NCBI RefSeq assembly: GCF_001536285.1
Contig: NZ_FAOZ01000049.1
Location: 1 to 42,663 of the forward strand
Direction of reading: 5' to 3'
Source: Parafrankia irregularis
GTDB lineage: Bacteria > Actinomycetota > Actinomycetes > Frankiales > Frankiaceae
DNA: 42,663 nucleotides
Part shown: piece by piece, positions 15,614 to 38,420 of the stretch
Layout: every line of letters starts with the position of its first letter
How positions within the stretch are numbered: the stretch's first letter is position 1
Notes under the pieces: model-generated
Told to the model about the DNA's origin: nothing
The model's input: the letters and a program-made list of their open reading frames with translations, nothing else
The model's database searches: none
Made by a program: the position numbers and the translations under genes

Positions 15614-16312
15614 TTAGCGGGTGGGCGTGGGTGTGAGGGTGGTGCCGTCGGGGTGCGCGGCGTACACCCCGGCATCGCCCTCGGCGGCTGCCTTGTCGAC
15701 GGCGGCCTGTGCCTGCTGGCGGGTCTGGCGGACGGCGTAGGGGTCGACGCGGTCGCCCCAGACGGTCCACACCGCCTCCCCGTCGGTGACGGAACCGGCC
15801 GTAGGCTCCCCGGCGGCGGTGCCGACGGGGAGCGCGCGGACCGCGAAGCGGCTCCCGGGCTTGAAGTCGGCCAGGAGGCCGACCTTCTCCCAGACAGCGG
15901 CGTAGGCGGCGAGCAGCCCGGGATGGGTGCCGTTGTCCGCCCAGTCCCCGCCGCTGCGCCGCACCTCGAGCCGGACCTGTTCGGCGGTGAGGAGGCCGAC
16001 GAGAGTGTCGGGGACGTCAGTGTCCAGTCCGTCGGCGTCGACGGGCCCGGTGACGTAGGTGTCACCGACGATCTGCAGATCCCAGCCGAACCGGGGCGCG
16101 TGGAACGCGGCGAGCGCGGTCGCGCGCTCGTTCAGCCCCAGGCACAGCCTGAGGCCGTCTTCGTTCGCCCACAGCGACCCGACGTCGGCGAGGTCGACGC
16201 GTTCGATCGAACCGCCGACGAGGGTTTGGAATCCGCGCAGGTCCGTCGGACTCATCTGGATGAGGGCGTGCGGGGCCTCAGGGTCGGCGGGCACCGTCAA
16301 CACTCGGATCAT
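15614..16312 (-). CDS. DUF3846-domain protein (longer paralog)
   Basis: This 232-residue protein begins MIRVLTVPADP. It matches the DUF3846 pattern: a short beta strand, a region around LVGGSIERVDL, then LWANEDGL and an N-rich ERATALA stretch. The family is common in actinobacterial plasmids and phages and has no settled function. An extra 100-residue C-terminal part (aromatic strand VWTVWGDRVDPYAV) follows. The ATG overlaps the stop of the upstream paralog as ATGA, so it is the last gene of a three-gene coupled operon. Confidence 0.75.
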   Translation of the reverse strand: MIRVLTVPADPEAPHALIQMSPTDLRGFQTLVGGSIERVDLADVGSLWANEDGLRLCLGLNERATALAAFHAPRFGWDLQIVGDTYVTGPVDADGLDTDVPDTLVGLLTAEQVRLEVRRSGGDWADNGTHPGLLAAYAAVWEKVGLLADFKPGSRFAVRALPVGTAAGEPTAGSVTDGEAVWTVWGDRVDPYAVRQTRQQAQAAVDKAAAEGDAGVYAAHPDGTTLTPTPTR

Positions 16313-16836
16313 GACCGGTTTCCCTTTCTGTTCGACGTCGCGGGTGGAGCGCCGACGATGCGGATGAGGGGCATGTCCTCGTCCGGTATCCGTCGCATCC
16401 TGTTCCAGGTGTGGGCGTAGGCATGCTCGAAACCGACGTAGCGACGGCCCTGAGACCATCTGCGGGCGCCGGGTTGTTTCGTCTGGACGAGGAACTCGCG
16501 GTGTTCGAGAAGGCGGATCAGTTCTTCGGGGGCGTCGGTGTCCCGTCCCTCGATGGTCGTGGGGCCGGCGAGGAAAGCATCGCCCCGAAGAATGGGCCGT
16601 GGTATCCGAAGCGGGCGGGTGTGGAACGCGGCGAGCGCGGTCGCGCGCATATTGCACGGCCCGGGGAAACGGGGATTCTCCTCGGGAAGGTACAGGCTGC
16701 TTTCCGGGTCGGTGACACTCACCGGACGCAGGATCCCTCCGACGAGCTTTTCCATGCCGGGAATGTCGGTGGGGTCGAGTCGGAGCCGGCGCGTCGGGAG
16801 GGTCGAGTCCGCCGGGATCACCAGGGCGGTGATCAT
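16309..16836 (-). CDS. DUF3846-domain protein (shorter paralog)
   Basis: This 175-residue protein begins MITALVIPADS. It shares with its neighbour the same layout: L.PTDI.G...LVGG.L/S, then an ENPRFPG stretch followed by MRATALAAFH. The two genes are adjacent, coupled paralogs. The central part is conserved while the C-termini differ. The start overlaps the stop of the upstream unknown gene (ATGA). Confidence 0.72.
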   Translation of the reverse strand: MITALVIPADSTLPTRRLRLDPTDIPGMEKLVGGILRPVSVTDPESSLYLPEENPRFPGPCNMRATALAAFHTRPLRIPRPILRGDAFLAGPTTIEGRDTDAPEELIRLLEHREFLVQTKQPGARRWSQGRRYVGFEHAYAHTWNRMRRIPDEDMPLIRIVGAPPATSNRKGNRS

Positions 16837-17587: not shown

Positions 17588-18934
17588 ATGGTCGACGAGA
17601 ACGAATCAGCCGACGCCGACATCGCGCGTGTCCTGGAAATCCTGCGGAATCACCAGGGGCCCGCGACCCTGGCGGAGATCCGGGTCGCGGCCGGAATGAT
17701 GGTCGGGCAGTTGCGGCCGGTGCTGGACCGGATGGTGGACACCGGCCAGCTCATGACGTCGCGACGGGCCGGGGTCCGGGGGCAGCCGTCGCAGTGGGCC
17801 CTGATTCCCACCCCGGGCGACGCGCCGGCACCCGACGTCACCACGCCCACCGGGCCACCGGCCGACACCGACACGCCCGCCGACGGGGACACCCAGGACG
17901 ACGGTGGCCGGCCGCTGATCACCGAGACCGGCGCCGCGCCGGACACCTCGCTGGACCTGGAGACCGCCCCCGACCTGGAGACCGTCGCACCATCGGACGC
18001 CGTTTCCGCGCCGTCCGCCGCTCCCACCGGCCATGCCCAGGCCGCCGACGCCGAGGTGATCGTGGAGCGCCCGGCAGAAGCCGAGCGGGAAACCGCCCCG
18101 GTACGGGCCGGCGACACGGCGGAGGACCCGGCCGCCTCGGCGGGCGCCGCGGACACCGCGACCGCGACGACGCAGGAGGGCCTCGCTGCCGAGGGCGAGG
18201 CCGACCCGCCCTCGCAGGAACCGCCCGCGACGCCCCCCACCGACATCGACGGGGTCATCAGCGCCGAGGCGGGCACCGAGACACCGCCCGACGTCCCCAG
18301 CGTGCACCCGCCGGTTCAGAACCCCCCAGCCGGCGCGGGTGAGGATCTCGCCGCCGTATCGCCGACGCCGACGGAGGCCGCACGCGGATCAGAGACCGGC
18401 GCGGATCCCACCACGCCACCCTCGCCGTTCGTCGAGGCGACATCCGGCGAGGGCACCGCAACCGCGCCCGGGGACGGGCCGACCCCCAGCGCGCCGGCCC
18501 CCGACCCCACCCCGGCTCCGGTTCCGGTTCCGGCGGGTGTCCAGGCGGGCGGGGCGGGGTGTGCGGCGTGGTCCTGCCCGGCGGCGCACTGCCCGGTACG
18601 GGCCGGTGTGGCACCCCCGCCCCGGCCGGCACGGCGCCGCGCCCCGAAGCCCCCGGCCGCGGTCGCGAAGCGCACGACGAACGCCGACGGGCAGCCCCGG
18701 CTGCAGGCCGGGGCGCTCACCGCGATGGTCCGGACGGTGCTGGCGACGAACGCCGACGTCGCGATGAGCGTGACCGAACTCAGCCGTGAAATCCCGGACC
18801 GCTCCTCCGGGGCGATCAACGCCTCCTGCGACGCGATGACCGGCCGCGGCGAGGTCCGCCTCGTCCCGGGCCGGCCGAAACGCTTCCAGATCACCCCCGC
18901 CGGACTCGCCCTCGCCGCCGGCGCCGGTACCTGA
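17588..18934 (+). CDS. Protein with two winged-helix domains joined by a long disordered linker
   Basis: This 448-residue protein starts MVDENESADADIARVLEILR. Residues 8-75 form a winged helix (GPATLAEIRVAAGMMVGQLRPVLDRMV... with wing RRAGVRGQPSQWAL). About 250 residues of Pro/Ala/Thr/Glu low-complexity sequence follow. A short Cys cluster (C-x4-C-x4-C, around residue 324) and a basic patch come next. Then a second winged helix lies at about 375-440 (VTELSREIPDRSSGAINASCDAMTGRGEVRL). The second domain resembles the N-terminus of the AAA+ protein at 34934-36091 (same RSSGA, L/A-D-x-L/M-T and PRRY/PKRF positions). This suggests two DNA sites bridged by a flexible tether. It is the first gene before the DprA-like cluster. 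Confidence 0.65.
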   Translation: MVDENESADADIARVLEILRNHQGPATLAEIRVAAGMMVGQLRPVLDRMVDTGQLMTSRRAGVRGQPSQWALIPTPGDAPAPDVTTPTGPPADTDTPADGDTQDDGGRPLITETGAAPDTSLDLETAPDLETVAPSDAVSAPSAAPTGHAQAADAEVIVERPAEAERETAPVRAGDTAEDPAASAGAADTATATTQEGLAAEGEADPPSQEPPATPPTDIDGVISAEAGTETPPDVPSVHPPVQNPPAGAGEDLAAVSPTPTEAARGSETGADPTTPPSPFVEATSGEGTATAPGDGPTPSAPAPDPTPAPVPVPAGVQAGGAGCAAWSCPAAHCPVRAGVAPPPRPARRRAPKPPAAVAKRTTNADGQPRLQAGALTAMVRTVLATNADVAMSVTELSREIPDRSSGAINASCDAMTGRGEVRLVPGRPKRFQITPAGLALAAGAGT

Positions 18935-19010: not shown

Positions 19011-19436
19011 ATGACCAGTTCCTCGGAGGGCCGGGTCGGCTCTCGGCTGAACCCGGACGGCACGTTCACCGTCACCGTGTGGCCGGGCGCGCCACGCGAC
19101 GCGATCGTGCACGGCCTGCTCACCGTCCCGGCCGGTACCGGCTTCGCCGGCACCCCCGCCCACCCTCACCGTCCAGCCGTCCTGCTCCTCACACCCCCCG
19201 GCGGGGACAGCATGCCCGCCGCCGCCGGGTGGGTGCCCCGGATACCGCTCGCCGACGCGGCGGTCGAGGTCGACGCGATCGAGGGCGCGCTCACGACGTT
19301 GCTCGCCGCCGCCGCTCTCGAGCTCCCGGACCTCGCCCGACGTCCCGAGACCCGGGCGTTGCACGACGCTCTCGGCCGGCTCCTGCGCCCCGGCCCGGAC
19401 GGCCCGCCGCCGTGGCGGGTCCCGCGCCCCCGATGA
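19011..19436 (+). CDS. Unknown small protein
   Basis: I do not recognise this 141-residue protein. The first half is beta-rich (GTFTVTVWPGAPRDAIVHGL), and the second half is helical and Ala/Leu-rich (VEVDAIEGALTTLLAAAALELPD). The start ATG 19011 follows CGAAGGGA at a good distance. Its stop overlaps an ATG at 19433, in frame with the DprA-like gene; I prefer the later start for that gene. It probably forms a short operon with the DprA-like gene downstream. Confidence 0.55.
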   Translation: MTSSSEGRVGSRLNPDGTFTVTVWPGAPRDAIVHGLLTVPAGTGFAGTPAHPHRPAVLLLTPPGGDSMPAAAGWVPRIPLADAAVEVDAIEGALTTLLAAAALELPDLARRPETRALHDALGRLLRPGPDGPPPWRVPRPR

Positions 19437-19483: not shown

Positions 19484-20311
19484 ATGCCCGATGAGAATCA
19501 GCGGCTCGCCCGCGCCGCCCTGACCGCCCTGTCCTCGGCCATCCCCTTGACCGACAGCCCGGCACGGACCGATCTCGCCGAGGTCTGGGCGTGCCTCGCC
19601 CCGCACCACCGGACCGTCGACCCGGCGCGTCTGCTCGACGAGGCGGATGCGCAGGGCTGGCGGCTACTGATCCCCGGGGATCCCGGATGGCCGTCCGCCC
19701 TCGACCACGCAACGGTCGGGCCGGTGGGGCTGTGGGCGCGGGGCGGCACCGGCCCGCCGGTGGCGGCCCGCCGCTGCGTGACCGTGGTCGGTGGGCTCAT
19801 CGCCTCCGCACACGCCGAACGTGTCACCGGTGACCTGGTCAGGGACCTGACCGGCCCGACCGTCGACCCGGTCACCGTGGCCAGCACCGGGCTTGGGAGC
19901 GGCGTCGACGTCACCGCGCTGCGGGTCGCCGCCACGCACCGCCGCGCCGTCGCGGTCCTGTCCTCCACCCGAGGGATCACCCGGCGCCACCAGGCTCACC
20001 TCGACCGTGTCACCGACGGCGGGATGGTCCTGTGCCTGGCCCCGCCCGGTGTCCTGCCGACCATCGGTCACGCGCACGCCCGCGTCCGGCTTCTCGCGGC
20101 CCTGTCCGCCGCGACGGTCCTCGTCGAGTCCGAGGCGCGGGGCGCCGCGTTCGACACCGCACGGGCCGCCCAGACACTCGGCCGCCCCGTCCTGGTCATC
20201 GCCGGCCCGGCCCCGGCGCTCGGCGCCGGACCGCGTGCCCTGCTCGCCGAGGGCACCGCGTGGCCGGTCACCGGCGCGGACGACGTCCGCGCCGTCCTCG
20301 ACCAGACCTGA
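19484..20311 (+). CDS. DprA/Smf-like Rossmann protein, copy 1
   Basis: This 275-residue protein has the DprA order: a short helical N-terminus, then GWRLLIPGDPGWPSAL (equivalent to the YP..L entry of DprA), and a beta strand VTVVGG. Then come ASTGLGSGVDVTAL (equivalent to SGLA.GID), ATVLVESEARGAAFDTA (equivalent to VVEA...S...TA) and ending PVLVIAGPAPAL with LLAEGTAW. DprA binds single-stranded DNA in transformation; relatives in the SLOG fold bind nucleotides. Here the usual G-S-R motif is degraded (VGGLIAS), and the C-terminal winged helix of DprA is absent. I chose ATG 19484 because it has AAAGG upstream and fits the starts of the other copies. It is one of five paralogs in this window. 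Confidence 0.72.
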   Translation: MPDENQRLARAALTALSSAIPLTDSPARTDLAEVWACLAPHHRTVDPARLLDEADAQGWRLLIPGDPGWPSALDHATVGPVGLWARGGTGPPVAARRCVTVVGGLIASAHAERVTGDLVRDLTGPTVDPVTVASTGLGSGVDVTALRVAATHRRAVAVLSSTRGITRRHQAHLDRVTDGGMVLCLAPPGVLPTIGHAHARVRLLAALSAATVLVESEARGAAFDTARAAQTLGRPVLVIAGPAPALGAGPRALLAEGTAWPVTGADDVRAVLDQT

Positions 20312-20318
20312 CCTCCCA

Positions 20319-20363
20319 CCGCAGGCCCGGGGGTGTGTGCCGTTCCCGCCCCCGGACCTGCGG
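20319..20363 (+). terminator. Hairpin terminator between DprA-like copies 1 and 2
   Basis: Inverted repeat CCGCAGG-x-CCGGGGG with its complement, one mismatch in 15 bp and a 15-nt loop, eight bases past the stop. Confidence 0.65.
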
Positions 20364-20414
20364 CACCAGGCCTTTCACCGATCCGGCCTGTCCTCAGAGG
20401 AGGGGAGCTTCGTC

Positions 20415-21263
20415 ATGGCTGAGTCTGCGCGCGACGCGGAGCGTCGTGCCCGCGCCGCGTTGACCTACCTGCCACCCGACCGTGCCCGCACCCGGCGGAT
20501 CCACCGCCACGGACCGGTCGCGGTATGGGAGATGATCGCCGGCCGGTATCCCGGCGTCGACCCCGGACGGCTGCTGGATCCTGACACCGCCGACGGGTGG
20601 CGGCTGATCATCCCCGGCGACCCCGACTGGCCCGCGACCCTCGATGGGACCGGCGGGCCGCTGGGCCTGTGGGCCCTGGGCGGCGGGGATCCGGCGGCGC
20701 TGCTGGTCCGGGCGGTGACGCTCACCGGTGCCCGCGCGGGCAGCGCCTACGGCCGGGCCGTCGCCGCCACGTTGGCCACCGACCTGACCGGCTCTTCGGC
20801 GCGGGTACCGGTCACGGTCGTCGCCCACGGCGGTGGTGATGGCGCCGACGGCGCGGCCCTCACCGCCGCCGCGCACCGGCCCGGGGCGGGTGTGGTCGCG
20901 GTCCTCGACACCAACACCGACCTGTTCCACCAGTACGAGCTGCTCACCGCGGTCGCCTCCGCCGGTGCGGTCGTCAGCGCCGCCGCGCCCGGCGCGTACC
21001 CCACCCCCGGCCATGTCACGGCCCGGATCGATCTGCTCGCGACTCTCGCCCACGCCGTCGTCCTCGTCGAGGCCGGCCCCGGCGACGACGACGCGCTGTC
21101 CGTCGCCTACACGGCCCGCTATCGGCGCCGCAGGCCGGTACTCGCCGTCCCCGGGCCGATCACCGCACCGGCGAGCGCCGGCCCGCACGTCCTCCTACGC
21201 GACGGCACCGCCCGTTGCGTCACCACGGCCGCCGACATCACCGCCCACCTGCCCCAGACCTGA
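20415..21263 (+). CDS. DprA/Smf-like Rossmann protein, copy 2
   Basis: This 282-residue protein starts MAESARDAERRARAALTYLP. It is closer to canonical DprA than copy 1: VTLTGARAGSAYGRAVAATLA matches the G-x-R-x-x-[ST]-x-Y-G motif. HGGGDGADGAAL fits the G-x-A/D helix, and HAVVLVEAGPG with RPVLAVPGPIT and SAGPHVLLRDGT fits the DprA C-terminal core. The winged-helix end of DprA is missing. GAGGGGAG lies upstream of the ATG. It sits in tandem with copies 1 and 3, each with its own terminator or spacer, so these are probably separate transcripts or loosely linked. Confidence 0.75.
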   Translation: MAESARDAERRARAALTYLPPDRARTRRIHRHGPVAVWEMIAGRYPGVDPGRLLDPDTADGWRLIIPGDPDWPATLDGTGGPLGLWALGGGDPAALLVRAVTLTGARAGSAYGRAVAATLATDLTGSSARVPVTVVAHGGGDGADGAALTAAAHRPGAGVVAVLDTNTDLFHQYELLTAVASAGAVVSAAAPGAYPTPGHVTARIDLLATLAHAVVLVEAGPGDDDALSVAYTARYRRRRPVLAVPGPITAPASAGPHVLLRDGTARCVTTAADITAHLPQT

Positions 21264-21486
21264 CCTCCCCGGTGCCCGTGCACGCCGGCCTCGACCTGGC
21301 CGAGGCCCGCGGAGCGCGGGAGATCACGACCCCGAGGGCCCCGCACCGCGCCAGCGCTGGCCGCGATCGCGGGGCAGGCCCGGCCAGCCCGCGTGTCGTG
21401 GGGGCGCTCGCCCGTAGGCCACGCCCCCTCGGCGGTCAGCCCGCCTGCCGATCCCACCCCCTTTCCCGACCGTGAAGGAGCTCGCC

Positions 21487-22341
21487 GTGACGATCGAGAC
21501 CCCACCGTCCGCGGACGCACGCCGGGACGCCGCCGCCGCGCTCACCGCTGTGCCCGTCGACCTGTGGGCCGAGGACCTGCGCTGGAGACATCCCGTGGAT
21601 CTGTGGGCGGATCTCGCACCGACCTATCCGCGAGTCGACCCTCGGCGGCTGCTCGAGGACGCCGCCACCGACGGCTGGTGGTTCCTCCTTCCCGGCGATC
21701 CGCAGTGGCCCGCCGCCCTGACCCGCGATCTGCGACCGGGACCGGTCGGGTTGTGGGTCCGCGGCTTCGGGGACCTCTCCGTACTCGCGGACCGATCCGT
21801 CACGATCACCGGCAACCGGACGAGCACCGGGTACGGGACCCAGGTCGCCGCCGACCTCGCCGCCGCGCTGGCGCCCCGGTGGGTGGACCGGCCGGTCACC
21901 ATCGCCGCCGCCGGGACGGGCGACGGGGCCGATGCCGCCGCGTTGCGCGCCGCCGCCGCGACCGGTACCGCGATCGCCGTGCTCGCCACCACCAGCGAAC
22001 TCACCGGGTAGAACGAGGACCTGTTCGAGGAGATCACCACCCGGGGCGGGCTGGTGGTCTGCGTGACCGCGCCCGGCACCGCACGGCACGGCCTGCACGC
22101 TCTCGCCCGCGCGCGGACTCTCGCGGTCCTGACCCGGGGCACGGTCCTGGTCGAGTCCCCTGCGCACGGCGGGGCGTGGGAGACCGCCTGTACCGCGTGG
22201 CGGTACAGGCGCCGGGTGATGGCGGTACCCGGCCCGATCACCGCCGCGCTCTCCGAAGGCCCGCACCGCTTGCTGGCCGAAGGCACCGCGCGGATGGTGA
22301 CCGGCCCCGACGACATCCGCGCCCACCTCGACCGCACCTGA
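21487..22341 (+). pseudogene. DprA/Smf-like copy 3, interrupted by an amber codon
   Basis: GTG 21487 (AAGGAG six bases upstream) opens MTIETPPSADARRDA and runs with the family pattern through GWWFLLPGDPQWPAAL, VTITGNRTSTGYGTQ, and GTGDGADAAALRAAA. A TAG codon at 22009-22011 then stops it. The same frame continues right after with NEDLFEEITTRGGLVVCV to ...PGPITAALSEGPHRLLAEGTA, the expected C-terminal half. Apart from the stop the gene is full length (285 codons). It is either inactive, a misread base, or a truncated two-piece product. GC and codon use stay coding-like on both sides, so the loss looks recent. Confidence 0.7.
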
Positions 22342-22346
22342 CCACA

Positions 22347-22367
22347 GGGCCGGCCTTCCGCCGGCCC
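22347..22367 (+). terminator. Hairpin terminator after DprA-like copy 3
   Basis: A perfect 8-bp stem GGGCCGGC with a 5-nt loop, five bases past the stop at 22341. The rest of the 330-bp stretch to 22673 shows no gene. Confidence 0.6.
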
Positions 22368-22673
22368 CGCTGTCAGTGCGCATCCGCCCCCGGCGCAGCC
22401 GGCGGCGCCGCCGCGACGGGCCGCCGGCACTCTCGGCCGCCTCGCCGTCGCCCTCCCCGACCCCGTGCGCCCCGGGAACGTCACCAGCGCCCAGGACCTG
22501 CCGCGCGGCGGCCTCGCCCACCCCGCCACGACCGCCACCAACATGCCCGACCCGCGTGGGGGCACCGCGTCCCGGCGGCCCCCACGCGGGTCAGGCACAG
22601 GCCCGCCCCATCCCAGCACGCGGACCGTGCGTGCGCGTCCCTGACCCACCAGGCAACGACCCGGAGGCCGAGC

Positions 22674-23660
22674 ACGCAATCCACACCCGTTTCCTCGGAG
22701 AGCACCCACCACGCGGCGCTCACGATCCGCCACAGCCGCGACACCGGCACCTTGATCGAAGGCACCTCACGGGCGGACCGGGCGATCCTCGCGCCGATCT
22801 TCACCCGGCATCGGGTCCGCTGGTCCGGCCTCATCGGGGAGGACGGCTCCTGGTACCGGCGTCACAGCCGAGGCCGGGCCGCGGACACCTTCCGCATCGA
22901 CGAACTCGCCGACGCGCTCCGCTCCGTCGGCTACCCCGTCACGATCAGCATCGACGACAGCCCCCTCACCGACATCGCCGCGCTCGAGACGGCCCGGATC
23001 GAGCGAGCCGAAGACCGCGCCGCCCACCACACCGACGCCGCCGGCCGGGCGACCCGCCGCGCGGACGCCCGCCGCGACGCCGCCGACGCCCTGCGCGGCG
23101 CGATCCCGCTGGGCCAGCCGGTCCTGCCCGGCCACCACTCCGCACCCGGGCATCGCCGTGACCTGGCCCGCGCCGACCGCCACGACGACGCCGCCGCGCA
23201 GGCCACCTCCAGCGCCGGCTACCACACCGACAAGGCCGCCGCCGCGACCCGCCACGCGCACAGCCGCCACGACGTCCCCGCCGCCCTGCGCCGCCTGACC
23301 ACCCTCGAAGCCGAACAGCGCGCGGACACCCGCGCCCTGCGGGCCGCCGAGAACCGGGCCGCCGGCGGAGGGCCGGCGCCACATCCCGGCTGGAAGGCCC
23401 GTCTCGAGGCGAACATGACCCAGCGGGCAGCCGAGATCGACTACTGGACCCGGTACGTCGCCGAACAGGAAGCCGCCGGAGTGAAGATCTGGCGGCCCGC
23501 TGACTTCCAGGCCGGGGACGAGGTGAAGGCGGCGTTCGGCGGGTGGCACCGGGTCCTGCGCGTCAACACCCGCTCCCTGACCATCCCCCACTGGGACCTG
23601 GAAGGCGAGACCTGGCGGCTGACCTACGACAAGGTCCTCGACCACCGGCCCCGGCGCTGA
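22674..23660 (+). CDS. DUF3560-domain protein with an ACG at the expected start
   Basis: The protein matches the DUF3560 pattern: LTIRHSRDTGTLIEGT near the N-terminus, then WYRRHSRGRAADTFRIDELADALRS and an Ala/Arg/Glu-rich coiled-coil. It continues with IPLGQPVLPGHHSAPGHRRDLARA and ends with a small beta domain (KPADF.AGDEVKAAFGGWHRVL). DUF3560 proteins occur on actinobacterial plasmids and phages; function unknown. No ATG, GTG or TTG is in frame before the conserved part. A GGAGG at 22663-22667 sits six bases from ACG 22674, exactly where ATG would be expected. The start has therefore probably mutated from ATG, which may reduce or abolish expression. The C-terminal 230 codons are duplicated at 26266. 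Confidence 0.68.
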   Translation, partial: TQSTPVSSESTHHAALTIRHSRDTGTLIEGTSRADRAILAPIFTRHRVRWSGLIGEDGSWYRRHSRGRAADTFRIDELADALRSVGYPVTISIDDSPLTDIAALETARIERAEDRAAHHTDAAGRATRRADARRDAADALRGAIPLGQPVLPGHHSAPGHRRDLARADRHDDAAAQATSSAGYHTDKAAAATRHAHSRHDVPAALRRLTTLEAEQRADTRALRAAENRAAGGGPAPHPGWKARLEANMTQRAAEIDYWTRYVAEQEAAGVKIWRPADFQAGDEVKAAFGGWHRVLRVNTRSLTIPHWDLEGETWRLTYDKVLDHRPRR

Positions 23661-23667
23661 CACCCTG

Positions 23668-23720
23668 ACGCGCGATGGCCCGACACCCCCCGCGTTCGGG
23701 GGTGGCGGGCCATCGCGCGT
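23668..23720. terminator. Bidirectional terminator between convergent genes
   Basis: A perfect 15-bp outer stem (ACGCGCGATGGCCCG and complement) encloses an inner CACCCCCC/GGGGGTG stem. It lies between the DUF3560 gene on + and DprA-like copy 4 on -, and can serve both. The duplicated unit at 26950 has lost it. Confidence 0.75.
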
Positions 23721-23745
23721 GGCGCGGAGGCGGGCAGGACCCGGG

Positions 23746-24597
23746 CTATCCGGTGGGGAGCCGGGCGGTGATGTCGTCCACGGTGACGGCGGGAACGGCG
23801 AGGCCCCCGCGCAGAAGCTGGTGGCATCCCCCGTGGCCGTGGACGGTCAGCCGTTGGGCGGGCGGGAGGGCCATGACGAGCCGGCCCCAGTCGTGGGCGG
23901 TCCGGGCCAGCGTCATCGCCTGCCCGGCCGTCTCGGACTCGACGACGAACAACGCCGGGGTCATCGTCGCCAGCAGGGCCGTCCGTGCCTCGCACCGGCG
24001 GTAGTAGCCCCCGGCGTCGGGGTCGGCGGCGGCGAGCGGCGGGGCGGTGGCGAGGACGACACCTCGGGCGGCGACCGTGGTGAACAGGCCGCGGTAGCGG
24101 GTGAGGGCCGCCGGTGTCGGCGAGGCGAGCAGGGCGATGGTGGGACCGTGGGGCGCGGCGCTCGTCACCGCGCGCAGCCCGATCCCCATCGACACGACAC
24201 CGGTCACGGTGACCGGCGGTGCGGCGGTGACGAGCCCGACGGCGAGACGCTCGGCGTGGTCCGCGCCGTGGGGGCTGGGGCTCCGGGTGCCGGTAAGGGT
24301 GACCGACCGGGCCGTCAGGTCGCCGAGGTGGCCCTCACCGTGCACCCACATGCCGATCGGTGTCCGGTCCGTCGGCGTCAGGGTGGTCGGCCATTCGTCG
24401 TCCCCGGGACACAGCAGTCGCCATCCCCGGACGGTGTGGGTGGCGAGCAGCCCGTCGGGGTCGAGGTCCACGTCGGCGTGCAGGGACGCCCACACGGCCT
24501 CGGCGCCGTCGGTGTGGACGGCGGAGGTGCGGTCGGGGTCGGGGGGAAGCTGGGTCAGCGCGGCGCGGGCGCGGCGCTCCCCGGTCGGGACAGGCAT
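23746..24597 (-). CDS. DprA/Smf-like Rossmann protein, copy 4
   Basis: This 283-residue protein starts MPVPTGERRARAALTQLPPD. The DprA-like landmarks are present: GWRLLCPGDDEWPTTLTP, VTLTGTRSPSPHG, a strand near IALLAS, ALFVVESETAGQAMTLARTA and a C-terminal GGCHQLLRGGLAVPA. The central GID-type segment is degraded (VVSMGIGLRAV). The ATG has AAAGG about nine bases upstream. It lies downstream of the small Cys/His gene (24695-25060) in the same direction, so the two are probably co-transcribed from the conserved leader region. It pairs with copy 5 in the duplicated unit. Confidence 0.72.
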   Translation of the reverse strand: MPVPTGERRARAALTQLPPDPDRTSAVHTDGAEAVWASLHADVDLDPDGLLATHTVRGWRLLCPGDDEWPTTLTPTDRTPIGMWVHGEGHLGDLTARSVTLTGTRSPSPHGADHAERLAVGLVTAAPPVTVTGVVSMGIGLRAVTSAAPHGPTIALLASPTPAALTRYRGLFTTVAARGVVLATAPPLAAADPDAGGYYRRCEARTALLATMTPALFVVESETAGQAMTLARTAHDWGRLVMALPPAQRLTVHGHGGCHQLLRGGLAVPAVTVDDITARLPTG

Positions 24598-24694
24598 GCA
24601 CGGGACCTTTCACGAGAACGCGGATCGGGCGGGGCCGGTGCCCGCCCCAGGGGCGCGCGGTGTGTCACCGGGCACCTCGGGCGGGTGAAGGCGG

Positions 24695-25060
24695 TCAGGC
24701 GGAGGTATCGACCGGTGCCGGGCCGGGGTTGGCGGGGCGGGATCCGCCGTCGGAGGTGGCGGCCACCGGCTGGGCCGCTGCCCACGGGAACAGCAGGATC
24801 AGTGGCGTGCCGGCCGGGACCGGGAACGGCTGGGAGACGCGGTGGTCGACACGCCATGACTCGACGCAGCGGGGGCAGACAGTGATCGCGTGAGGCGCCC
24901 CGTAGTCGACGGTGCCGTGCGGCCAGCCGTCGGGCGCGGTGTCCGGGCAGCCGCCGGGGAAGTACGGGATCAGATCGGCATCGAGGGCCTCGTTGTCGGG
25001 ATGCTCGGCGGCCTCACGCAACACGACGAGGACACGGTCGGTGGCCTCGGAACCATGCAT
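24695..25060 (-). CDS. Small Cys/His-motif protein (unit 1)
   Basis: This 121-residue protein starts MHGSEATDRVLVVLREA. Its centre has the pattern FPGGCPDTAPDGWPHGTVDY, then PHAITVCPRC: a Cys after GG, a PH, and a CxxC that could bind one zinc. The same pattern occurs in the proteins at 27847-28212 and 32254-33057. The C-terminus is a Pro-rich tail ending PVDTSA. CGGAG sits six bases from the ATG. It is the first gene of a pair with DprA-like copy 4 and has the same length as its paralog in unit 2. I know no family for it. Confidence 0.65.
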   Translation of the reverse strand: MHGSEATDRVLVVLREAAEHPDNEALDADLIPYFPGGCPDTAPDGWPHGTVDYGAPHAITVCPRCVESWRVDHRVSQPFPVPAGTPLILLFPWAAAQPVAATSDGGSRPANPGPAPVDTSA

Positions 25061-25386
25061 CGGGAACTCCGTTTCACGGTGATGGCGGGTTCCGGCGCCC
25101 CGGGCGAACGCCGGAGGCGGAATCATCGGAATGCGGGCCGCGTGTATCGAACGAATGTGGTGTCGCGGCGCGCGGTGGAATCGTAGCTCGCCGTCCCGGC
25201 GCGGTAAACAATTCCGCATCACACGCCGACAATTATGGAAAGTCCGCATTCGAGGGTTCTTCAACCTTGCCTGCGGCAGCTTTTTCTTCACCTGCGTGAA
25301 GGTGCGCGAGGACGATTCCGGAAGATGAACTGCTTCAGGTCCCCTTCCGAAACCGGGCGGTGTGGCTACCGATCTTCACCGCGAGG
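25061..25386 (-). promoter_or_regulatory. Leader/promoter region of unit 1 (repeat copy R1)
   Basis: This non-coding region upstream of the small Cys/His gene is clearly similar to 28213-28527. The strongest part is near 25178-25226: TCGTAGCTCGCC, then CCCGGCGCGGTAAACAATTC, then CGCATCACACG, with one difference over more than 45 bases. Such conservation, while flanking bases have drifted, points to a promoter or operator. The far end (25340-25386) resembles the last 15 codons of the gene at 28475, so the duplication once included that gene's 3' end. Confidence 0.6.
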
Positions 25387-25401
25387 CGCGGGGCCGAACA
25401 G

Positions 25402-25443
25402 GTGAGCCCCCCCCGGGGGGCGGTGATCCCCGGGGGGGCTCAC
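25402..25443 (-). terminator. Hairpin terminator after the winged-helix gene
   Basis: A near-perfect stem of about 16 bp starting GTGAGCCCCCC with its complement and a 10-nt loop, 17 bases beyond the stop of the gene ending at 25460. Confidence 0.7.
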
Positions 25444-25459
25444 CGCCGGTCGGGCAGGG

Positions 25460-25966
25460 TCAGGCGGACGTGTCGGCCGGCACGGGGTCGGTACCGGCCG
25501 GGCGGGATCCATCCACGGGCGTCGCGGCCTCGGTGAGCATCCTCACCAACCGCCGCGCCTCCTCATCCGTGAGGCGTAGACAAGCAAGACCACCCATCCA
25601 CGGCGCGTTGACCGTCAGGATCACCGTGGCCGCGCCGTCATAGTCGGGTCCCGGTCGCACGCCGACCGTGCCACGATCGGACAGGACCGTTGCCAGGGGC
25701 GTGGGCGGGGTACCCCATCCGGGATGGGCGACGACAACCGACCCGCCTGCTACTGCGGCAGGATGGTCCGGCACGGTCCACCGCGGCTCGGGACCGTCGC
25801 CCGCCCCGATCACCTCACCGGCCTCCAGGTAGGCGAGCAAGCTCTCGACGAGCTCCGGGGAACGCAGCCCGGTCCACCACGCCAACTCACCGAGATCCAT
25901 CGGCCCCGTCGCTCGACGCAGCACCTCCGGCACGGTGACAGGAGCCGGTTTCGGCAACATAGCCAT
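25460..25966 (-). CDS. Small winged-helix protein
   Basis: This 168-residue protein starts MAMLPKPAPVTVPEVLRR. Residues 10-65 look like a winged helix (GPMDLGELAWWTGLRSPELVESLLAYLEAGEVI with a short wing to RWTVP). The C-terminal half has a beta pair (ATVILTVNAPWMG) and a helix (LTDEEARRLVRMLTEA). The last residues DPVPADTSA are nearly identical to the end of the unrelated small Cys/His protein at 27847, and the DNA around the stop is also shared. The gene's 3' end therefore came by recombination. AAGGAT lies upstream of the ATG. It sits between the two duplicated units, as an insert of about 860 bp. Confidence 0.62.
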   Translation of the reverse strand: MAMLPKPAPVTVPEVLRRATGPMDLGELAWWTGLRSPELVESLLAYLEAGEVIGAGDGPEPRWTVPDHPAAVAGGSVVVAHPGWGTPPTPLATVLSDRGTVGVRPGPDYDGAATVILTVNAPWMGGLACLRLTDEEARRLVRMLTEAATPVDGSRPAGTDPVPADTSA

Positions 25967-26154
25967 AGCAATCCTTCCATCGCAGGCCAAGGGCGAGGTT
26001 TCGCCCCCGGGGAACTCGCTATTTACGGCAGGCTTCGGAAAACGCATCACGTCGACGCGGCCATCGATAGCCGCATTCCAGGGGCCGGACATATCAAGCT
26101 CGGCGGATCGGTAGCTAACCTTTTCCCGCCGAGCGTTTCCACCGCCCCTGTTGC

Positions 26155-26248
26155 GGATGCGGTTTTCCGGGTACGCAATCAGCTGTACCTCGATCCGACG
26201 GAACCCGGCCAGCCGAATCCGCCAACCATCACCAGTGACATGAATCAC
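26155..26248 (-). repeat. Conserved block upstream of a winged-helix gene (copy B)
   Basis: Minus-strand match to 17475-17568. From GTG 26248 it reads VIHVTGDGWRIRLAG...IEVQLIAYP. Here the frame stays open into the winged-helix gene about 190 bp further on. It ends directly at the truncated DUF3560 copy, so it marks a junction. Both copies lie upstream of winged-helix genes. Confidence 0.55.
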
Positions 26249-26265
26249 CGTCCGGGACCGGATCG

Positions 26266-27048
26266 ATCGCCGCGCTCGCGGCGGCCCGGATCGGGCGGGC
26301 GCTGGACCGTGCCGCCCACCACACCGATGCCGCCGGCCGGGCGGCGGGCCGCGCGGACGCCCGCCGCGACGCCGCCGACGCCCTGCGCGGCGCGATCCCG
26401 CTGGGGCGGCCGGTCCTGCCCGGTCACCGCTCCGCACCCGGGCATCGCCGTGATCTGGCCCGCGCCGACCGGCACGACGATGCCGCCACGCAGGCCACCG
26501 CGATCGCCGGCTACCACGCCGGCAAGGCCGCCGCCGCGACCCGCCACGCGCGCAGCCGCCTCGACGTCCCCGCCGCCCTGCGCCGCCTGACCACCCTCGA
26601 AGCCGAACAGCGCGCGGACACCCGCGCCCTGCGGGCCGCCGAGAACCGGGCCGCCGGCGGAGGGCCGGCGCCACATCCCGGCTGGAAGGCCCGTCTCGAG
26701 GCGAACATGACCCAACGGGCCGCGCGGATCGACTACTGGACCCGGTATGTCGCCGAGCAGGAGGCGGCCGAGGTGAAGGTGTGGCGGCCGGAGGACTTCC
26801 ACCCTGGGGATGAGGTGAAGGCGGCGTTCGGCGGATGGCACCGGGTCCTACGCGTCAACACCCGCTCCCTGACCATCCCCCACTGGGACCTGGAAGGAGA
26901 GACCTGGCGGCTGACCTACGACAAGGTTCTCGACCACCGGCCCCGGCCCCGGGCGCGGACGCGACCGCGTCAGACCGCGGGCAGATGGCCGGTGATATCG
27001 GCGACCGTCATGACCGGCACGGCGACGGCGCCGCGGAGGAGCTGGTGA
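26266..27048 (+). pseudogene. 5'-truncated DUF3560 copy
   Basis: From ATC 26266 the sequence repeats the C-terminal 230 codons of the DUF3560 gene (22980-23657), with about nine in ten residues the same by eye. The N-terminal domain (LTIRH...) is absent. An in-frame stop at 26236 and no start before ATG 26707 exclude a full product. The normal stop is lost, so the frame runs on into the 3' end of the convergent DprA-like copy 5. An internal start at 26707 would give 113 residues, including the whole small C-terminal domain. Confidence 0.75.
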
Positions 27049-27800
27049 CAGCCGCCGACGGGCTCGGCGTCGGTCTCGGGGGGCACCGCCAGCACCGTGC
27101 GGCCCCGACGGCGGGCGGCCCGCGCGGTTTCCATCAGCGGGCCTGACGTTTCCGTCTCGACGACCAGCAACGCCGACGACAGCGCCGCGAGGAGCGCCGT
27201 GCGCAGAGCAGTGCGACGGCTCGGTGCGTCGCGCACGGAGGGCCCCAACGGCGGGGCGTCGCTCAGCTGGACGCCGTGGACCGTGACCATCTCCAACAGC
27301 TCGGGATGGCGGGAAAGCGACGTCGCCGTCAGGACGGCCACGGTCGGCCCGTGGGTCACGGCGGCGGTCAGGGCCTGCACCCCGACACCCACCCCCACGG
27401 TCGCGATCACGGTGACCGTGGGGGTGGCCGTGACGAGCCCCTGCGCGAGCTGGCCGGTGAGGTGGGCTCGGTGCGGGCTCGGCCTGCGGGTACCGGCGAC
27501 CGCGACGGATCGGGCCATGAGGTCGGCGAGGTGGCCGTCACCGCGCGCCCACAGGCCGATCGGCATACCCCGTGCCGGGGTGAGGGTCGGCGGCCATTCG
27601 TCGTCCCCAGGGCACAGCAGCCGCCATCCCCGGGCGGTGTGGGTGGCGATCAGCCCGTCGGGGTCGAGGTCCGACCCGGCGGACAGGGACGCCCATACGG
27701 CCTCGGCGCCGCCGGTGTGCACAGCGGCGTCACGGGCCTTGTCGAGGGGGAACAGGGTCAGCGCGGCGCGGGCGCGGCGCTCCTCGGGCGGGACAGGCAT
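26970..27800 (-). CDS. DprA/Smf-like Rossmann protein, copy 5
   Basis: This 276-residue protein starts MPVPPEERRARAALTLFP and is the partner of copy 4. It shares GWRLLCPGDDEWP, the GTRRPSPH strand-loop, ALLVVETETSGPLMETARAA and the end GGCHQLLRGAVAVPV. The middle has drifted strongly (ATVGVGVGVQALTAAV). By eye only about 55-60% of residues agree with copy 4, although the flanking DUF3560 parts agree far better. The stop overlaps the run-on frame of the DUF3560 remnant. GCGTTGGAATG-type spacing with AAAGG lies upstream of the ATG. It is probably co-transcribed with the gene at 27847. Confidence 0.7.
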   Translation of the reverse strand: MPVPPEERRARAALTLFPLDKARDAAVHTGGAEAVWASLSAGSDLDPDGLIATHTARGWRLLCPGDDEWPPTLTPARGMPIGLWARGDGHLADLMARSVAVAGTRRPSPHRAHLTGQLAQGLVTATPTVTVIATVGVGVGVQALTAAVTHGPTVAVLTATSLSRHPELLEMVTVHGVQLSDAPPLGPSVRDAPSRRTALRTALLAALSSALLVVETETSGPLMETARAARRRGRTVLAVPPETDAEPVGGCHQLLRGAVAVPVMTVADITGHLPAV

Positions 27801-27846
27801 TCCAACGCCTTTCAGGACGATGCGGATCGGGCGGGGGTAGGGGCGG

Positions 27847-28212
27847 TCAGGCGGACGTGTCGGCCGGCACCGGGTCGGTGTCGGCCGGGGATCCGTCCCC
27901 GGGCGTGGTGGGTGCCAGCTGGGCTGCGACCCACGGGAACCGCAGGGTCAGCGGCGTGCCGGCGGGCACCGTGACCGGTGCGGACACGAGGTGGTCCTCA
28001 CGCCACGAGTCGAGGCAGCCGGGGCAGATCGTCGTCGCGTGGGGGTCTTCGTAGTCGACGGTGTCGTGCGGCCAGCCCTCGGGGGCGCTGTCCGGGCATC
28101 CGCCGGGGAAGAACGCAACGACACAGGCCGCGTTCAGGTTCGGGTTGGTCGGGTAGTCACCGGCCTCGCGTAGGTGGGTCAGGACACGGTCGGTGACATC
28201 GGAAACATGCAT
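27847..28212 (-). CDS. Small Cys/His-motif protein (unit 2)
   Basis: This 121-residue protein starts MHVSDVTDRVLTHLREAG. It has the same GGCPD...GWPHDTVDY...PHATTICPGC pattern and the same length as the paralog at 24695; about 60% of residues agree by eye. The tail is DPVPADTSA. CGGAG lies six bases before the ATG. It is the first gene of a pair with DprA-like copy 5, driven by the conserved leader R2. Confidence 0.65.
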   Translation of the reverse strand: MHVSDVTDRVLTHLREAGDYPTNPNLNAACVVAFFPGGCPDSAPEGWPHDTVDYEDPHATTICPGCLDSWREDHLVSAPVTVPAGTPLTLRFPWVAAQLAPTTPGDGSPADTDPVPADTSA

Positions 28213-34933: not shown

Positions 34934-36091
34934 CTAGATCTGCTTGCCGAGGGCGAGGGGCGTGAGCTTCGCTCCGAACGCCTTCTCGACCGTCTCCGCG
35001 ACCGTGGGCCGGTCCTCGGTCGGGGCGACCCCGATCAGGTTCGCCGCCGCCGCCGGGACACCCAACACGTCGACGATCTTCTGGAAGGCGATCAACTCGC
35101 GGAGCTGGGGTGACCAGCCGATGTCACCGGACTCGCGGCGACGGTGCAGGTTCCGGGCGACGGTGACCGCCCGCCTGTCGATGTCGAGTTTGGTGGCCAG
35201 GTCGAAGTCGGTGGACACCTCGATCTGCACGCTGAACCTGCTGGAGAGGGCCTCGGTGAGGATCGCGCCATGGACCCCCGGGTTGTGGCCCGCGATGATG
35301 TAGAAGCCAGGCTTGGCTTCGATCGTTTCGCCTTTGTGGGCCTTGACCACGATCCTTTTCCGGCCGTCCATCGCCGGGTACATGGCCGCGAGGACCGCCG
35401 GGCTGATCAGGGTGGCGTCGTCGACGAGCAGGACCTTTCCCTCCTGCATGGCGCAGATGAGCGGCCCGTAGACGAACTCGTACCGGCCCGTCGGTGTCTG
35501 GGTGTACTCCCCGATCAGGTCCCCGACCTGGGTGTCCCCATCACCCGCGATGGTGATCAGATCCTCCCCGAACGCCGCCTCGATCACGCTCGTCTTGCCG
35601 GTGCCGGGCGGTCCGTAGAGCAGGACCGGTACCTCGGCGGCGCGCAGTTTGCGCAACACCTCGACGTCGGGCAGATCGGCCAGTTTCCTCGGCCGGTAGA
35701 CCTGCCCGGAGGGGCGGATGATCCCCCCGTCCGGCGTCGTCGCCGGTACCGCCGGGGGCGCCGGCTTCGGCGGGACCGCAGCGGGGACGGGAGGTGCCGG
35801 TGGGGCCTTCGGCGGGAGGGTCCCGGCCTTGATGGCGAGTGCGTCCCCGGTGGTGGGGGTGGCGGCGTACCGGCGTGGCGCCGGGCTGGTCAGGGCGGCC
35901 TGCCCCGCCTCGGTCAGGCGATCCAGAGCGTTGCCGACCGCACCCGAGCTACGCCCTCCGAGGGCTTTCGCGATCGCCGTGGGGCTGTGGGAGCCCGTGT
36001 TGTCGAGGAGGAACTCGGCGACAAGGCGATGCAGGGCGTACGGGGACAGCCGGGGCGTCTCGGGGGCGGGGGTCGGGGCAGGGCTGGTCAT
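34934..36091 (-). CDS. AAA+ ATPase of the MoxR/CobS/GvpN type with N-terminal winged helix
   Basis: This 385-residue protein starts MTSPAPTPAPETPRLSPYAL. Residues 15-76 form a winged helix (SPTAIAKALGGRSSGAVGNALDRLTEAGQ, wing PAPRRYA) that resembles the second domain of the protein at 17588. A Pro-rich linker leads to the ATPase: Walker A GPPGTGKT at 160-167, Walker B VLLVDDATL around 220-228, and GHNPGVHGAILTEALSSRF with sensor and arginine residues. MoxR/CobS-type ATPases act with VWA proteins as remodelling machines on a protein or metal-loading target. The VWA gene follows directly. GGAGATCAGG lies upstream of the ATG. CobS-like phage and plasmid ATPases are the closest type I can name. 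Confidence 0.83.
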   Translation of the reverse strand: MTSPAPTPAPETPRLSPYALHRLVAEFLLDNTGSHSPTAIAKALGGRSSGAVGNALDRLTEAGQAALTSPAPRRYAATPTTGDALAIKAGTLPPKAPPAPPVPAAVPPKPAPPAVPATTPDGGIIRPSGQVYRPRKLADLPDVEVLRKLRAAEVPVLLYGPPGTGKTSVIEAAFGEDLITIAGDGDTQVGDLIGEYTQTPTGRYEFVYGPLICAMQEGKVLLVDDATLISPAVLAAMYPAMDGRKRIVVKAHKGETIEAKPGFYIIAGHNPGVHGAILTEALSSRFSVQIEVSTDFDLATKLDIDRRAVTVARNLHRRRESGDIGWSPQLRELIAFQKIVDVLGVPAAAANLIGVAPTEDRPTVAETVEKAFGAKLTPLALGKQI

Positions 36092-36130
36092 CCTGATCTC
36101 CAGGCAGGTGAAGGAAAGGGCGAGGGGTGG

Positions 36131-36167
36131 CTCCGGGGTGGCGTGCGGGGCGCACGCCACCCCGGAG
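36131..36167 (-). terminator. Very strong hairpin terminator
   Basis: A perfect 17-bp stem starting CTCCGGGGTGGCGTGCG with a 3-nt GGG loop, 10 bases beyond the stop of the gene ending at 36178 and just before the AAA+ gene. Confidence 0.75.
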
Positions 36168-38410: not shown

Positions 38411-38420
38411 GAGGATGGCC

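What the first reader, a model, noticed from the sequence alone, without database searches (positions are those of the whole stretch)
19484..27800. Five diverged DprA/Smf-like Rossmann paralogs in 8 kb
Three tandem copies on + and two on - keep the DprA core landmarks but lose the C-terminal winged helix, and in several cases the GSR or GID motifs. Normal genomes hold one dprA for transformation. Local expansion with strong divergence resembles SLOG-type nucleotide sensors in conflict systems, or proteins that counter host variation. This could be an undescribed system.
Basis: partly seen in the sequence, partly recalled or inferred. Interest (0 to 1): 0.72.

Follow-up and report, generated by a model that had tools for sequence, protein, structure and literature searches.

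The report
DprA paralog cluster on mobile element
A soil bacterium related to nitrogen-fixing Frankia carries, on DNA related to conjugative elements, five diverged copies of the DNA-uptake protein DprA that keep its shape but have lost most of the site that grips single-stranded DNA, which suggests that mobile DNA has put a recombination protein to a new use.

Summary
Five DprA-family genes lie at 19484-27800 (three +, two -); copy C has an in-frame TAG. All five match PF02481, and models of A and E match solved DprA structures and ShosA far better than other SLOG proteins. They are DprA derivatives, not generic nucleotide sensors.

The genome is Parafrankia-like. Clusters of three to five copies occur in 4 of 6 sampled genomes of the genus. 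In two of them the cluster shares a contig with an integrase and type IV transfer genes. Three genomes of two other genera carry a single copy beside DUF3846 genes. Paralog groups predate the species split and evolve fast, under weak constraint.

In 17 invariant columns of canonical ssDNA-pocket motifs (set chosen after seeing the alignment) the cluster retains 29% on average, against 66% in 55 other invariant columns. Dimer-interface positions are partly kept. Elsewhere, DprA relatives sit beside ComM-like genes, one with altered Walker motifs.

Most likely these are element-borne DprA derivatives that modulate ssDNA recombination, perhaps as decoys, rather than canonical RecA loaders. That mechanism is inferred. 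No effector, toxin or PRTase partner was found in the scan. New variant of a known kind.

The parts
19484..20311 (+). DprA-like A (275 aa); GSR Arg replaced (GGL); orthologs in 4 other loci
   Evidence: PF02481 1.2e-22; model pLDDT 84.4, best PDB match 3maj Z 29.4; orthologs on C68 and in G002, G003, G004
20415..21263 (+). DprA-like B (282 aa)
   Evidence: PF02481 5.8e-21; orthologs in G002, G003, G004
21472..22341 (+). DprA-like C, interrupted by an in-frame TAG at 22009-22011; no ortholog in the other clusters examined
22752..23660 (+). DUF3560 protein (start uncertain)
   Evidence: PF12083 2.2e-20; 79% identical homolog in the G003 cluster
23746..24597 (-). DprA-like D (283 aa)
   Evidence: PF02481 3.2e-19; orthologs in G004, G003 (5' part missing) and G002 (frameshifted)
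24695..25060 (-). 121-aa Cys/His-containing protein upstream of D
   Evidence: no Pfam hit; homologs upstream of E in L042 and of D in L045
26266..27048 (+). Degenerate second DUF3560 copy (remnant of a segmental duplication)
   Evidence: 300-nt direct repeat 26266-26565, 91% identical to 22974-23273; 26707-27048 is 92% identical over 80 aa to the intact copy
26970..27800 (-). DprA-like E (276 aa)
   Evidence: PF02481 1.1e-24; model pLDDT 88.9, 3maj Z 28.3; ortholog in G004
27847..28212 (-). Second 121-aa Cys/His-containing protein, upstream of E
   Evidence: 60% identical to the first copy
19011..19436 (+). 141-aa protein of unknown family, directly upstream of A, with homologs in four other cluster loci (L042, L045, L047, L048)
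   Evidence: 58-62% identity; no Pfam hit to rely on
17588..18934 (+). 448-aa protein; sequence and relatives suggest a winged-helix domain at each end (inference)
   Evidence: homologs in L042, L045, L047, L048 and in G014 and G027; MarR/HTH hits in the G027 homolog; itself no Pfam hit
16309..16836 (-). DUF3846-like protein (below Pfam cut-off)
   Evidence: PF12957 0.0018; homologs in four other loci
15614..16312 (-). DUF3846 protein
   Evidence: PF12957 6.8e-11
33138..34844 (-). VWA (CoxE-like) protein of the element backbone
   Evidence: PF05762 9.3e-7; 79% identical in P. soli
34934..36160 (-). AAA_5 ATPase of the element backbone
   Evidence: PF07728 2.6e-17; 82% identical in P. soli
7005..11934 (+). 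Element backbone: TadE/Tad-like proteins and BTAD protein
   Evidence: PF07811, PF13400, PF03704; homologs in L043 and, for the last two genes, L045

Best explanation
SHOWN: the five genes are DprA-family proteins (N-terminal helical domain plus Rossmann fold, no winged helix). They belong to a clade that lies on conjugative-element DNA wherever its context could be read (Parafrankia, G014, G024, G027), and that multiplied in Parafrankia into at least five old lineages kept in different species. Compared with canonical DprA they have lost most of the ssDNA-pocket motifs while much of the scaffold and part of the dimer interface are kept. INFERRED: they act on the DprA/RecA step of ssDNA handling, when the element's strand arrives in a recipient or when the host takes up or repairs DNA. 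They probably do so not as ordinary RecA loaders but as modulators that pair with each other, with the host DprA or with RecA, and so change or block recombination of ssDNA. Fast divergence would follow from tracking host partners or rival elements.
For: Family and fold. Mobile context: in P. soli (G004:C237) and P. colletiae (G002:C143) the cluster is on one contig with a tyrosine integrase and PrgI-, VirB4/TraC-, VirD4/TraG- and Replic_Relax proteins (Pfam on the P. soli proteins and the P. colletiae coupling protein; the other P. colletiae genes by reciprocal BLAST to them). Clade: cluster genes with G014, G021 and G024 against canonical and accessory DprA 100/100, 81/99 with plasmid copies and G027 added; groups A, B, D, E, F starred in both. 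Selection: dN/dS of 21 ortholog pairs 0.39-0.74, against 0.12-0.37 for VirD4-, VirB4-, PrgI-, Replic_Relax- and TrbL-like genes and 1.04-1.44 (means of 18 settings) in neutral simulation. Pocket: N209, P174 and a basic residue at 202 in 0 of 17 cluster rows, R115 in 9, R208 in 17; canonical rows keep N209, P174, R115 and R208 in 10 of 10 and a basic 202 in 9 of 10. Retention over 17 pocket columns 0.29 against 0.66 over 55 other invariant columns, permutation p 0.0003. Link to recombination: in G024 and G027 the DprA-like gene is beside a ComM/ChlI-like gene. DprA lies near ssb, ParB or a relaxase on 3 of 10 plasmid records opened. Published: DprA raises recombination in E. coli Hfr crosses (PMC12386762, passages).
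Against: No biochemical or genetic evidence for any of these proteins. DNA binding may have moved to other residues: some members are basic (pI up to 11.4), though the window's five are near neutral (5.9-7.2), and D, E and F rows keep arginines near 203-204. Of the dimer-zone positions, 249 is G in 9 of 17, 263 L in 17, 264 R in 13, 269 L in only 3 (9 of 10 in canonical), 271 T in 11, 275 D or E in 16. The four Replic_Relax contigs of the same genome (C4, C22, C43, C45) carry no DprA hit. 10 of 18 contigs with DUF3846 have no DprA-like hit. The window's own element is damaged: its NlpC/P60 gene is truncated by recombinase genes and no T4SS gene was found on the contig. The pocket columns were chosen after the alignments had been seen, and the permutation test ignores shared ancestry of rows. 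The highest dN/dS (0.74) overlaps the lowest single neutral runs (0.70).
Confidence: 0.42

Rival explanations
1. Ordinary element-borne DprA: the proteins coat and protect the incoming single strand of the element in the recipient and hand it to RecA or the replication machinery.
For: An accessory DprA matches 124 of 72,556 plasmid records (some are chromosome-sized). In 3 of 10 plasmid records opened dprA lies close to ssb/DUF4192/ParB or to ParB, MobC and a relaxase. T4SS genes on two related contigs imply ssDNA transfer (inference).
Against: Of the 9 plasmid DprAs aligned, 7 keep RSG and YP and 5 keep N209; the cluster keeps none of N209, P174 or a basic 202. One protein would suffice; this does not explain five lineages.
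Confidence: 0.25
2. SLOG-type sensor or antitoxin of a defence or addiction system, like ShosA/PsyrA: the proteins sense a nucleotide or phage/plasmid DNA and control an effector.
For: PADLOC ShosA profile hits A and E (3.4e-15, 5.3e-17); the ShosA structure scores Z 23.6 and 23.3, for E tied with H. pylori DprA. DprA homologs as antitoxins are in print (PMC9122126, passages; PMC4670107, passages).
Against: No PRTase, helicase or other effector domain in 29 other window ORFs scanned with Pfam. Of eight other window proteins given to PADLOC, only the AAA protein had hits, weak ones to P-loop proteins.
Confidence: 0.13
3. Decaying duplicates with no function: duplication followed by drift.
For: C has a nonsense codon, the P. 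colletiae D gene is frameshifted and the G003 D gene lacks its 5' part. dN/dS is higher than in the transfer genes.
Against: Five ortholog groups are kept in frame in different species. dN/dS of 0.39-0.74 lies below the simulated neutral means of 1.04-1.44, though single neutral runs go down to 0.70. Many scaffold residues are kept.
Confidence: 0.13
4. Decoy (a special case of the best explanation): the proteins are dominant-negative partners that disable the host's DprA/ComM step, so that incoming homologous DNA cannot delete the element (anti-transformation).
For: Pocket motifs lost, scaffold better kept. A ComM homolog with altered Walker A and B motifs lies near the accessory dprA of G001:C194, and a ChlI-only ComM relative lies beside the DprA-like gene in two elements. 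The genome has a ComEC-family gene. A pneumococcal prophage reduces transformation by raising host DprA (PMC12637031, abstract and passages).
Against: Natural transformation is not known to me in Frankia (recalled). The G001 DprA near the altered ComM belongs with canonical DprA in the tree and keeps an intact pocket; that its contig is mobile is only inferred from a ParB-like neighbour. Dimer position 269 is lost in 14 of 17 rows. No interaction data.
Confidence: 0.16

Closest known systems
Canonical DprA/Smf (PF02481; S. pneumoniae 3uqz, R. palustris 3maj, H. pylori 4ljk)
   Same: Same Rossmann fold and, for 3uqz and 3maj, N-terminal domain; Z 23.8-29.4; many invariant scaffold residues kept
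   Different: Most ssDNA-pocket motifs lost; below the NCBIfam dprA cut-off; several copies together
ShosA / PsyrA / RqlI DprA-like antitoxins
   Same: DprA fold outside competence; in P2-like phages in one case (PMC9122126, passages)
   Different: No PRTase or helicase partner found among the window ORFs scanned
Plasmid-borne dprA of Actinobacteria (Nocardioides pCHL, Pimelobacter pA-N39, Arthrobacter pJ337-114)
   Same: Short DprA (302-343 aa) carried by plasmids, near ssb and ParB or near ParB and a relaxase
   Different: Single copy in the stretches read; pocket intact in these three
T4SS-type ICEs of Actinobacteria (PMC3218068, abstract and passages)
   Same: Integrase plus VirB4/VirD4-type transfer genes on the related contigs
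   Different: The passages I saw do not mention DprA; I did not see the paper's tables. Ends of the present elements were not found

Membership tests
DprA superfamily (PF02481) | Match to the DNA_processg_A profile over the gathering score | tested here: met
   5 of 5 copies (C in two parts), 43.4-87.2 bits against 29.6
DprA superfamily (PF02481) | DprA fold: N-terminal helical domain and Rossmann fold | tested here: met
   Models of A and E (2 of 5 copies), pLDDT 84.4 and 88.9; 3maj Z 29.4 and 28.3
Housekeeping DprA (NCBIfam TIGR00732 equivalog) | Score over the curated cut-off of 191 bits | tested here: not met
   35.8-90.5 bits
Housekeeping DprA | ssDNA-contact residues (Sp R115, K202 and others; Hp R52, K137, R143; passages of PMC4066776 and PMC4489622) and motifs RNR, RSG, YP | tested here: not met
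   R208 17 of 17, R115 9 of 17, N209, P174 and basic 202 0 of 17; retention 0.29 against 0.66, p 0.0003, columns chosen after seeing the alignment
Housekeeping DprA | Dimer zone (Sp G249, S250, I263, Q264, L269, T271, D275; passage of PMC4066776) | tested here: inconclusive
   249 G 9, 263 L 17, 264 R 13, 269 L 3, 271 T 11, 275 D/E 16 of 17 rows; 250 not counted; no dimer was modelled
Housekeeping DprA | RecA loading on SSB-coated ssDNA | not testable with these tools
   needs biochemistry
ShosTA / PsyrTA / RqlHI toxin-antitoxin | Adjacent PRTase or PRTase-helicase toxin gene | tested here: not met
   No such Pfam domain in 29 other window ORFs scanned; six small predicted ORFs were not scanned
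SLOG effector systems (ThsA type) | SLOG domain fused or linked to an effector domain | tested here: not met
   No second Pfam domain over its cut-off in the DprA-like proteins; no effector domain in the neighbours scanned
T4SS-type ICE | Integrase, coupling protein and T4SS ATPase on the same contig as the cluster | tested here: met
   P. soli contig by Pfam; P. colletiae contig by Pfam for the coupling protein and BLAST for the rest. On the window contig itself no T4SS gene was found
T4SS-type ICE | att direct repeats bounding the element | tested here: inconclusive
   tRNA-Lys beside the integrase of P. colletiae, but no 17-nt repeat of its surroundings on the contig

The most novel reading that the evidence does not exclude
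Conjugative elements of Actinobacteria carry a captured comM-dprA recombination module that has been turned against its source: DprA copies with a dismantled DNA pocket and ComM relatives with altered or missing ATPase parts act as decoys that disable host ssDNA recombination, protecting the element from deletion by homologous DNA. In Parafrankia the DprA arm has multiplied into a set of co-maintained paralogs, perhaps forming mixed dimers.
Probability: 0.15. Interest if true: 0.8.

Novelty: new variant of a known kind. Interest (0 to 1): 0.5.

Why it matters
DprA is the hinge between incoming single-stranded DNA and RecA. Elements that keep several DprA derivatives with altered DNA sites would show that mobile DNA evolves its own control over this step. 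The conserved groups A, B, D, E and F give ready-made proteins to test whether they help conjugal establishment, block transformation-based deletion, or sense something else.

Tried and rejected
Generic SLOG sensor: weaker than DprA in sequence and fold searches. Toxin-antitoxin: no partner found in the ORFs scanned. Phage origin: no match for A in 50,697 phage records, and none of 28 candidate stretches of viral contigs encoded a relative. Plasmid search with E gave 11 records, all below 60% identity, all annotated as DprA. ICE ends by repeats around the tRNA-Lys gene in P. colletiae: none. The genome-contig scan found only two named loci, P. colletiae and P. soli, from one short pattern, so the spread is judged from the genome search. 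The Tsukamurella 'plasmid' with yifB-dprA looks like a chromosome piece (rplS, lepB, ribonuclease HII and YraN genes beside it) and was left out of the plasmid rows. DUF3560 as constant partner: in 2 of 4 clusters only. Read-through of the TAG in C: another DprA-like gene with a TAG (G021:C127) has it near the N-terminus, so no shared site; I treat C as broken or an assembly error.

Literature: ten searches of the held open-access library. None of the listings I saw showed a paper on DprA clusters of ICEs. 'Leading region' + DprA + conjugative gave 0 papers; DprA + 'integrative and conjugative element' + paralog gave one unrelated genome paper. One search was swamped by unrelated words. Papers were seen as passages, not read whole. 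After the recount of the dimer positions (269 lost in 14 of 17 rows) I lowered the decoy and novel-case odds by 0.02 each and raised decay by 0.01.

Full report
WHAT IS THERE. The window is a whole contig (C49, 42,663 bases) of a 9.54-Mb, 82-contig genome. The only named relatives found for the cluster are Parafrankia colletiae and P. soli, and two same-genus genomes have contigs of the same lengths as those records, so I call the genome Parafrankia-like. Five DprA-like genes are confirmed: A 19484-20311 +, B 20415-21263 +, C 21472-22341 +, D 23746-24597 -, E 26970-27800 -. All score over Pfam's cut-off for DNA_processg_A and below the NCBIfam dprA equivalog cut-off. C carries an in-frame TAG at 22009-22011 with coding composition on both sides. 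The same genome holds a housekeeping dprA (C5), a canonical-like accessory one (C52) and a sixth cluster-type gene (C68).

FOLD. AlphaFold2 models built from 11 sequences reached pLDDT 88.9 for E and 84.4 for A; B, C and D were not modelled. Foldseek with E ranks DprA chains and ShosA first. VIA-align gives 3maj Z 29.4 (rmsd 2.8, 266 aligned) for A and 28.3 (rmsd 3.1, 265 aligned) for E; 3uqz 27.5 and 24.6; 4ljk 27.0 and 23.8; ShosA 23.6 and 23.3; Moco carriers 17.5 and 17.6; ThsA 11.5 and 12.5. They are DprA proteins without the winged helix, not generic SLOG domains.

CONTEXT. In P. soli (G004:C237) five and in P. colletiae (G002:C143) three cluster genes, one of them frameshifted, lie among the same neighbours: a 153-aa gene and DUF3846 genes on one side, a wHTH-like gene and a 141-aa gene directly before A, a 121-aa Cys/His gene before D or E, then VWA and AAA proteins. 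On the P. soli contig the backbone goes on into Replic_Relax, NlpC/P60-transglycosylase, VirB4- and PrgI-like genes and a tyrosine integrase, all over Pfam's cut-offs, with TrbL- and HTH_17-like genes below them. The P. colletiae contig has the coupling protein and homologs of the others. This is the make-up of a T4SS-type ICE, a class known from Actinobacteria (PMC3218068, abstract and passages). The ends were not found. In the window the element is damaged: its NlpC/P60 gene is cut at residue 202 by tyrosine recombinase genes, one of which has a 764-aa identical copy on contig C43.

SPREAD. With a profile of the five, 94 of 97 genomes have a match, 75 of them exactly one. Clusters of three or more occur in 4 of 6 genomes of the genus (G000, G002, G003, G004) and in no other genus of that sample. 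In 393 genomes of the class, 14 pass 1e-57; outside the genus these are single hits, or in G021 two on different contigs (weaker cluster-type genes would be missed at that threshold). DUF3846 is found in 14 of 97 genomes, on 18 contigs. Eight of the 18 contigs, in seven genomes of three genera, have a DprA-like hit within 3 kb of it: G000:C49, G002:C143, G003:C177, G003:C149, G004:C237, G014:C1, G024:C471 and G027:C402 (coordinates compared by eye); ten have none. G014, G024 and G027 carry a single DprA-like gene there, and G014 and G027 share the AAA, VWA, wHTH-like and BTAD-like neighbours. So a DprA-like gene is a recurrent but not obligatory part of this element family and multiplied in Parafrankia.

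AGE AND SELECTION. In a tree of 32 proteins the cluster genes with G014, G021 and G024 split from canonical and accessory DprA at 100/100, the cluster genes form one clade (97/93), and groups A, B, D, E and F (P. soli 3 and G003:C149) are each starred. With plasmid genes and G027 added (41 rows) the split is 81/99 and the cluster 89/92. The element context of G021 was not shown. The paralogs are older than the split of the species compared. Nei-Gojobori dN/dS in 21 ortholog pairs is 0.39-0.74. In the P. colletiae/P. soli comparison VirD4-, VirB4-, PrgI-, Replic_Relax and TrbL-like genes give 0.12-0.37, the integrase 0.44. Neutral simulations of three of the genes give means of 1.04-1.44 in 18 settings, single runs down to 0.70. 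So there is constraint, but weak. Several neighbouring small genes are as fast or faster (up to 0.91).

THE DNA POCKET. Residues known to matter for ssDNA binding are R115, K119, K144, K175, K202 and K225 in pneumococcus (PMC4066776, passages) and R52, K137, R143 in H. pylori (PMC4489622, passages). Of these, K119, K144, K175 and K225 are not conserved in the canonical Frankiaceae and other rows either. In 17 cluster rows R208 (= Hp R143) is kept in 17, R115 in 9 (plus 2 Lys), R210 in 8, and N209, P174 and a basic residue at 202 in none; canonical rows keep R115, R208, N209, R210, P174 and RSG in 10 of 10, and a basic 202 in 9 of 10. D, E and F rows keep nearby arginines at 203-204, so some positive charge remains. 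Over 17 pocket-motif columns that are invariant in canonical-like DprA, mean retention in the cluster is 0.29, against 0.66 over 55 other invariant columns (20,000 permutations, p 0.0003). I chose the motif columns after seeing the alignments, four altered plasmid rows were left out, and rows are related, so p is a guide only. Dimer-zone positions are kept unevenly: 263 in 17, 275 in 16, 264 in 13, 271 in 11, 249 in 9, 269 in 3 of 17. The single-copy relatives (G014, G021, G024, G027) already lack N209 and P174, so the loss began before the expansion. Two Streptomyces plasmid DprAs also have altered pockets, so this is not unique to Frankiaceae.

A LINK TO COMM. In G024 and G027 the DprA-like gene is followed by a gene whose C-terminal part matches the ChlI domain of ComM/YifB (Pfam 1.1e-5 and 0.016, both under the curated cut-off; HHalign 97.4%, E 1.4e-11; 20 column shuffles gave at most 0.51%). 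In G001:C194 an accessory dprA, of the canonical side of the tree and with intact pocket, lies near a full-length ComM homolog in which GPPGSGK reads GGTPTAA and LFLDE reads LLLTD. On the chromosome comM and dprA are neighbours. Such elements thus seem to carry relatives of the chromosomal pair, in part with altered motifs. The Parafrankia clusters have no such gene among the predicted proteins.

PLASMID RELATIVES. The accessory DprA of G001 finds 124 of 72,556 plasmid records; of the 75 in the ten commonest genus names 53 are actinobacterial, and some records are chromosome-sized. Of ten records opened, two have ssb, DUF4192 and ParB genes beside dprA (pCHL, pA-N39, both typed non-mobilizable although pCHL has a MobF relaxase gene 8 kb away), and one has ParB, MobC and a relaxase (pJ337-114, typed conjugative). 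Six others show no such set and one looks chromosomal. DprA raises recombination in E. coli Hfr crosses (PMC12386762, passages). This gives moderate support for a role of element-borne DprA in ssDNA recombination after transfer.

MECHANISM. Identity, element context, age and loss of the pocket motifs are shown. That the proteins act on the DprA/RecA step is inferred from ancestry, the ComM link and the plasmid contexts. Whether they help the element, block the host or do something else is open. I favour modulators without canonical ssDNA loading. The boldest form is the decoy. DprA is already known as a meeting point of prophages and transformation in pneumococcus (PMC12637031, abstract and passages). 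Against it: Frankia is not known to me to be naturally transformable (recalled), though a ComEC-family gene is present.

VERDICT. A real and conserved expansion of DprA derivatives on conjugative-element DNA, a new variant of a known kind, with an untested function.

Noticed in passing
window 1026-6627: Transposition genes: a Mu-transpos_C/rve protein (TniA-like), TniB and TniQ, next to the element backbone; the TniQ protein also ends in a LysR-type HTH.
   Followed up: no
window 38421-42334: Two tyrosine recombinase genes truncate the element's NlpC/P60 gene (C-terminal part left within 38039-38449); a 764-aa stretch of one is 100% identical to a product of contig C43. A different NlpC/P60 fragment follows at 42331-42663.
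   Followed up: partly
window 22974-28520: Segmental duplication of DUF3560 - DprA-like - 121-aa gene, copies 3.1-3.3 kb apart; the matched DUF3560 stretches are 91% identical, those of D and E 73%.
   Followed up: partly
L051 8484-10043: ComM/YifB homolog with altered Walker A and B motifs near an accessory dprA in G001:C194.
   Followed up: partly
L060 5800-6771, L061 5341-6231, L062 3520-4413: A second, separate kind of DprA-like protein (about 300-320 aa, with MRN in place of RNR in the two printed) in G028, G004 and G003; G028:C191 has two hits within 2.2 kb.
   Followed up: no
L044 10446-11303: DNA methylase (N6_N4_Mtase) gene close to the integrase and HTH_17-like gene of the P. soli element, with an 89% identical homolog in P. 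colletiae.
   Followed up: no
L049 6853-7686: A sixth cluster-type gene (group A ortholog) near a contig end in the same genome, so a second related element may exist.
   Followed up: partly
L069 (Tsukamurella record NZ_LR134461.1): A record filed as a plasmid carries rplS, lepB, ribonuclease HII, YraN, yifB and dprA genes in a row and is probably a piece of chromosome.
   Followed up: no
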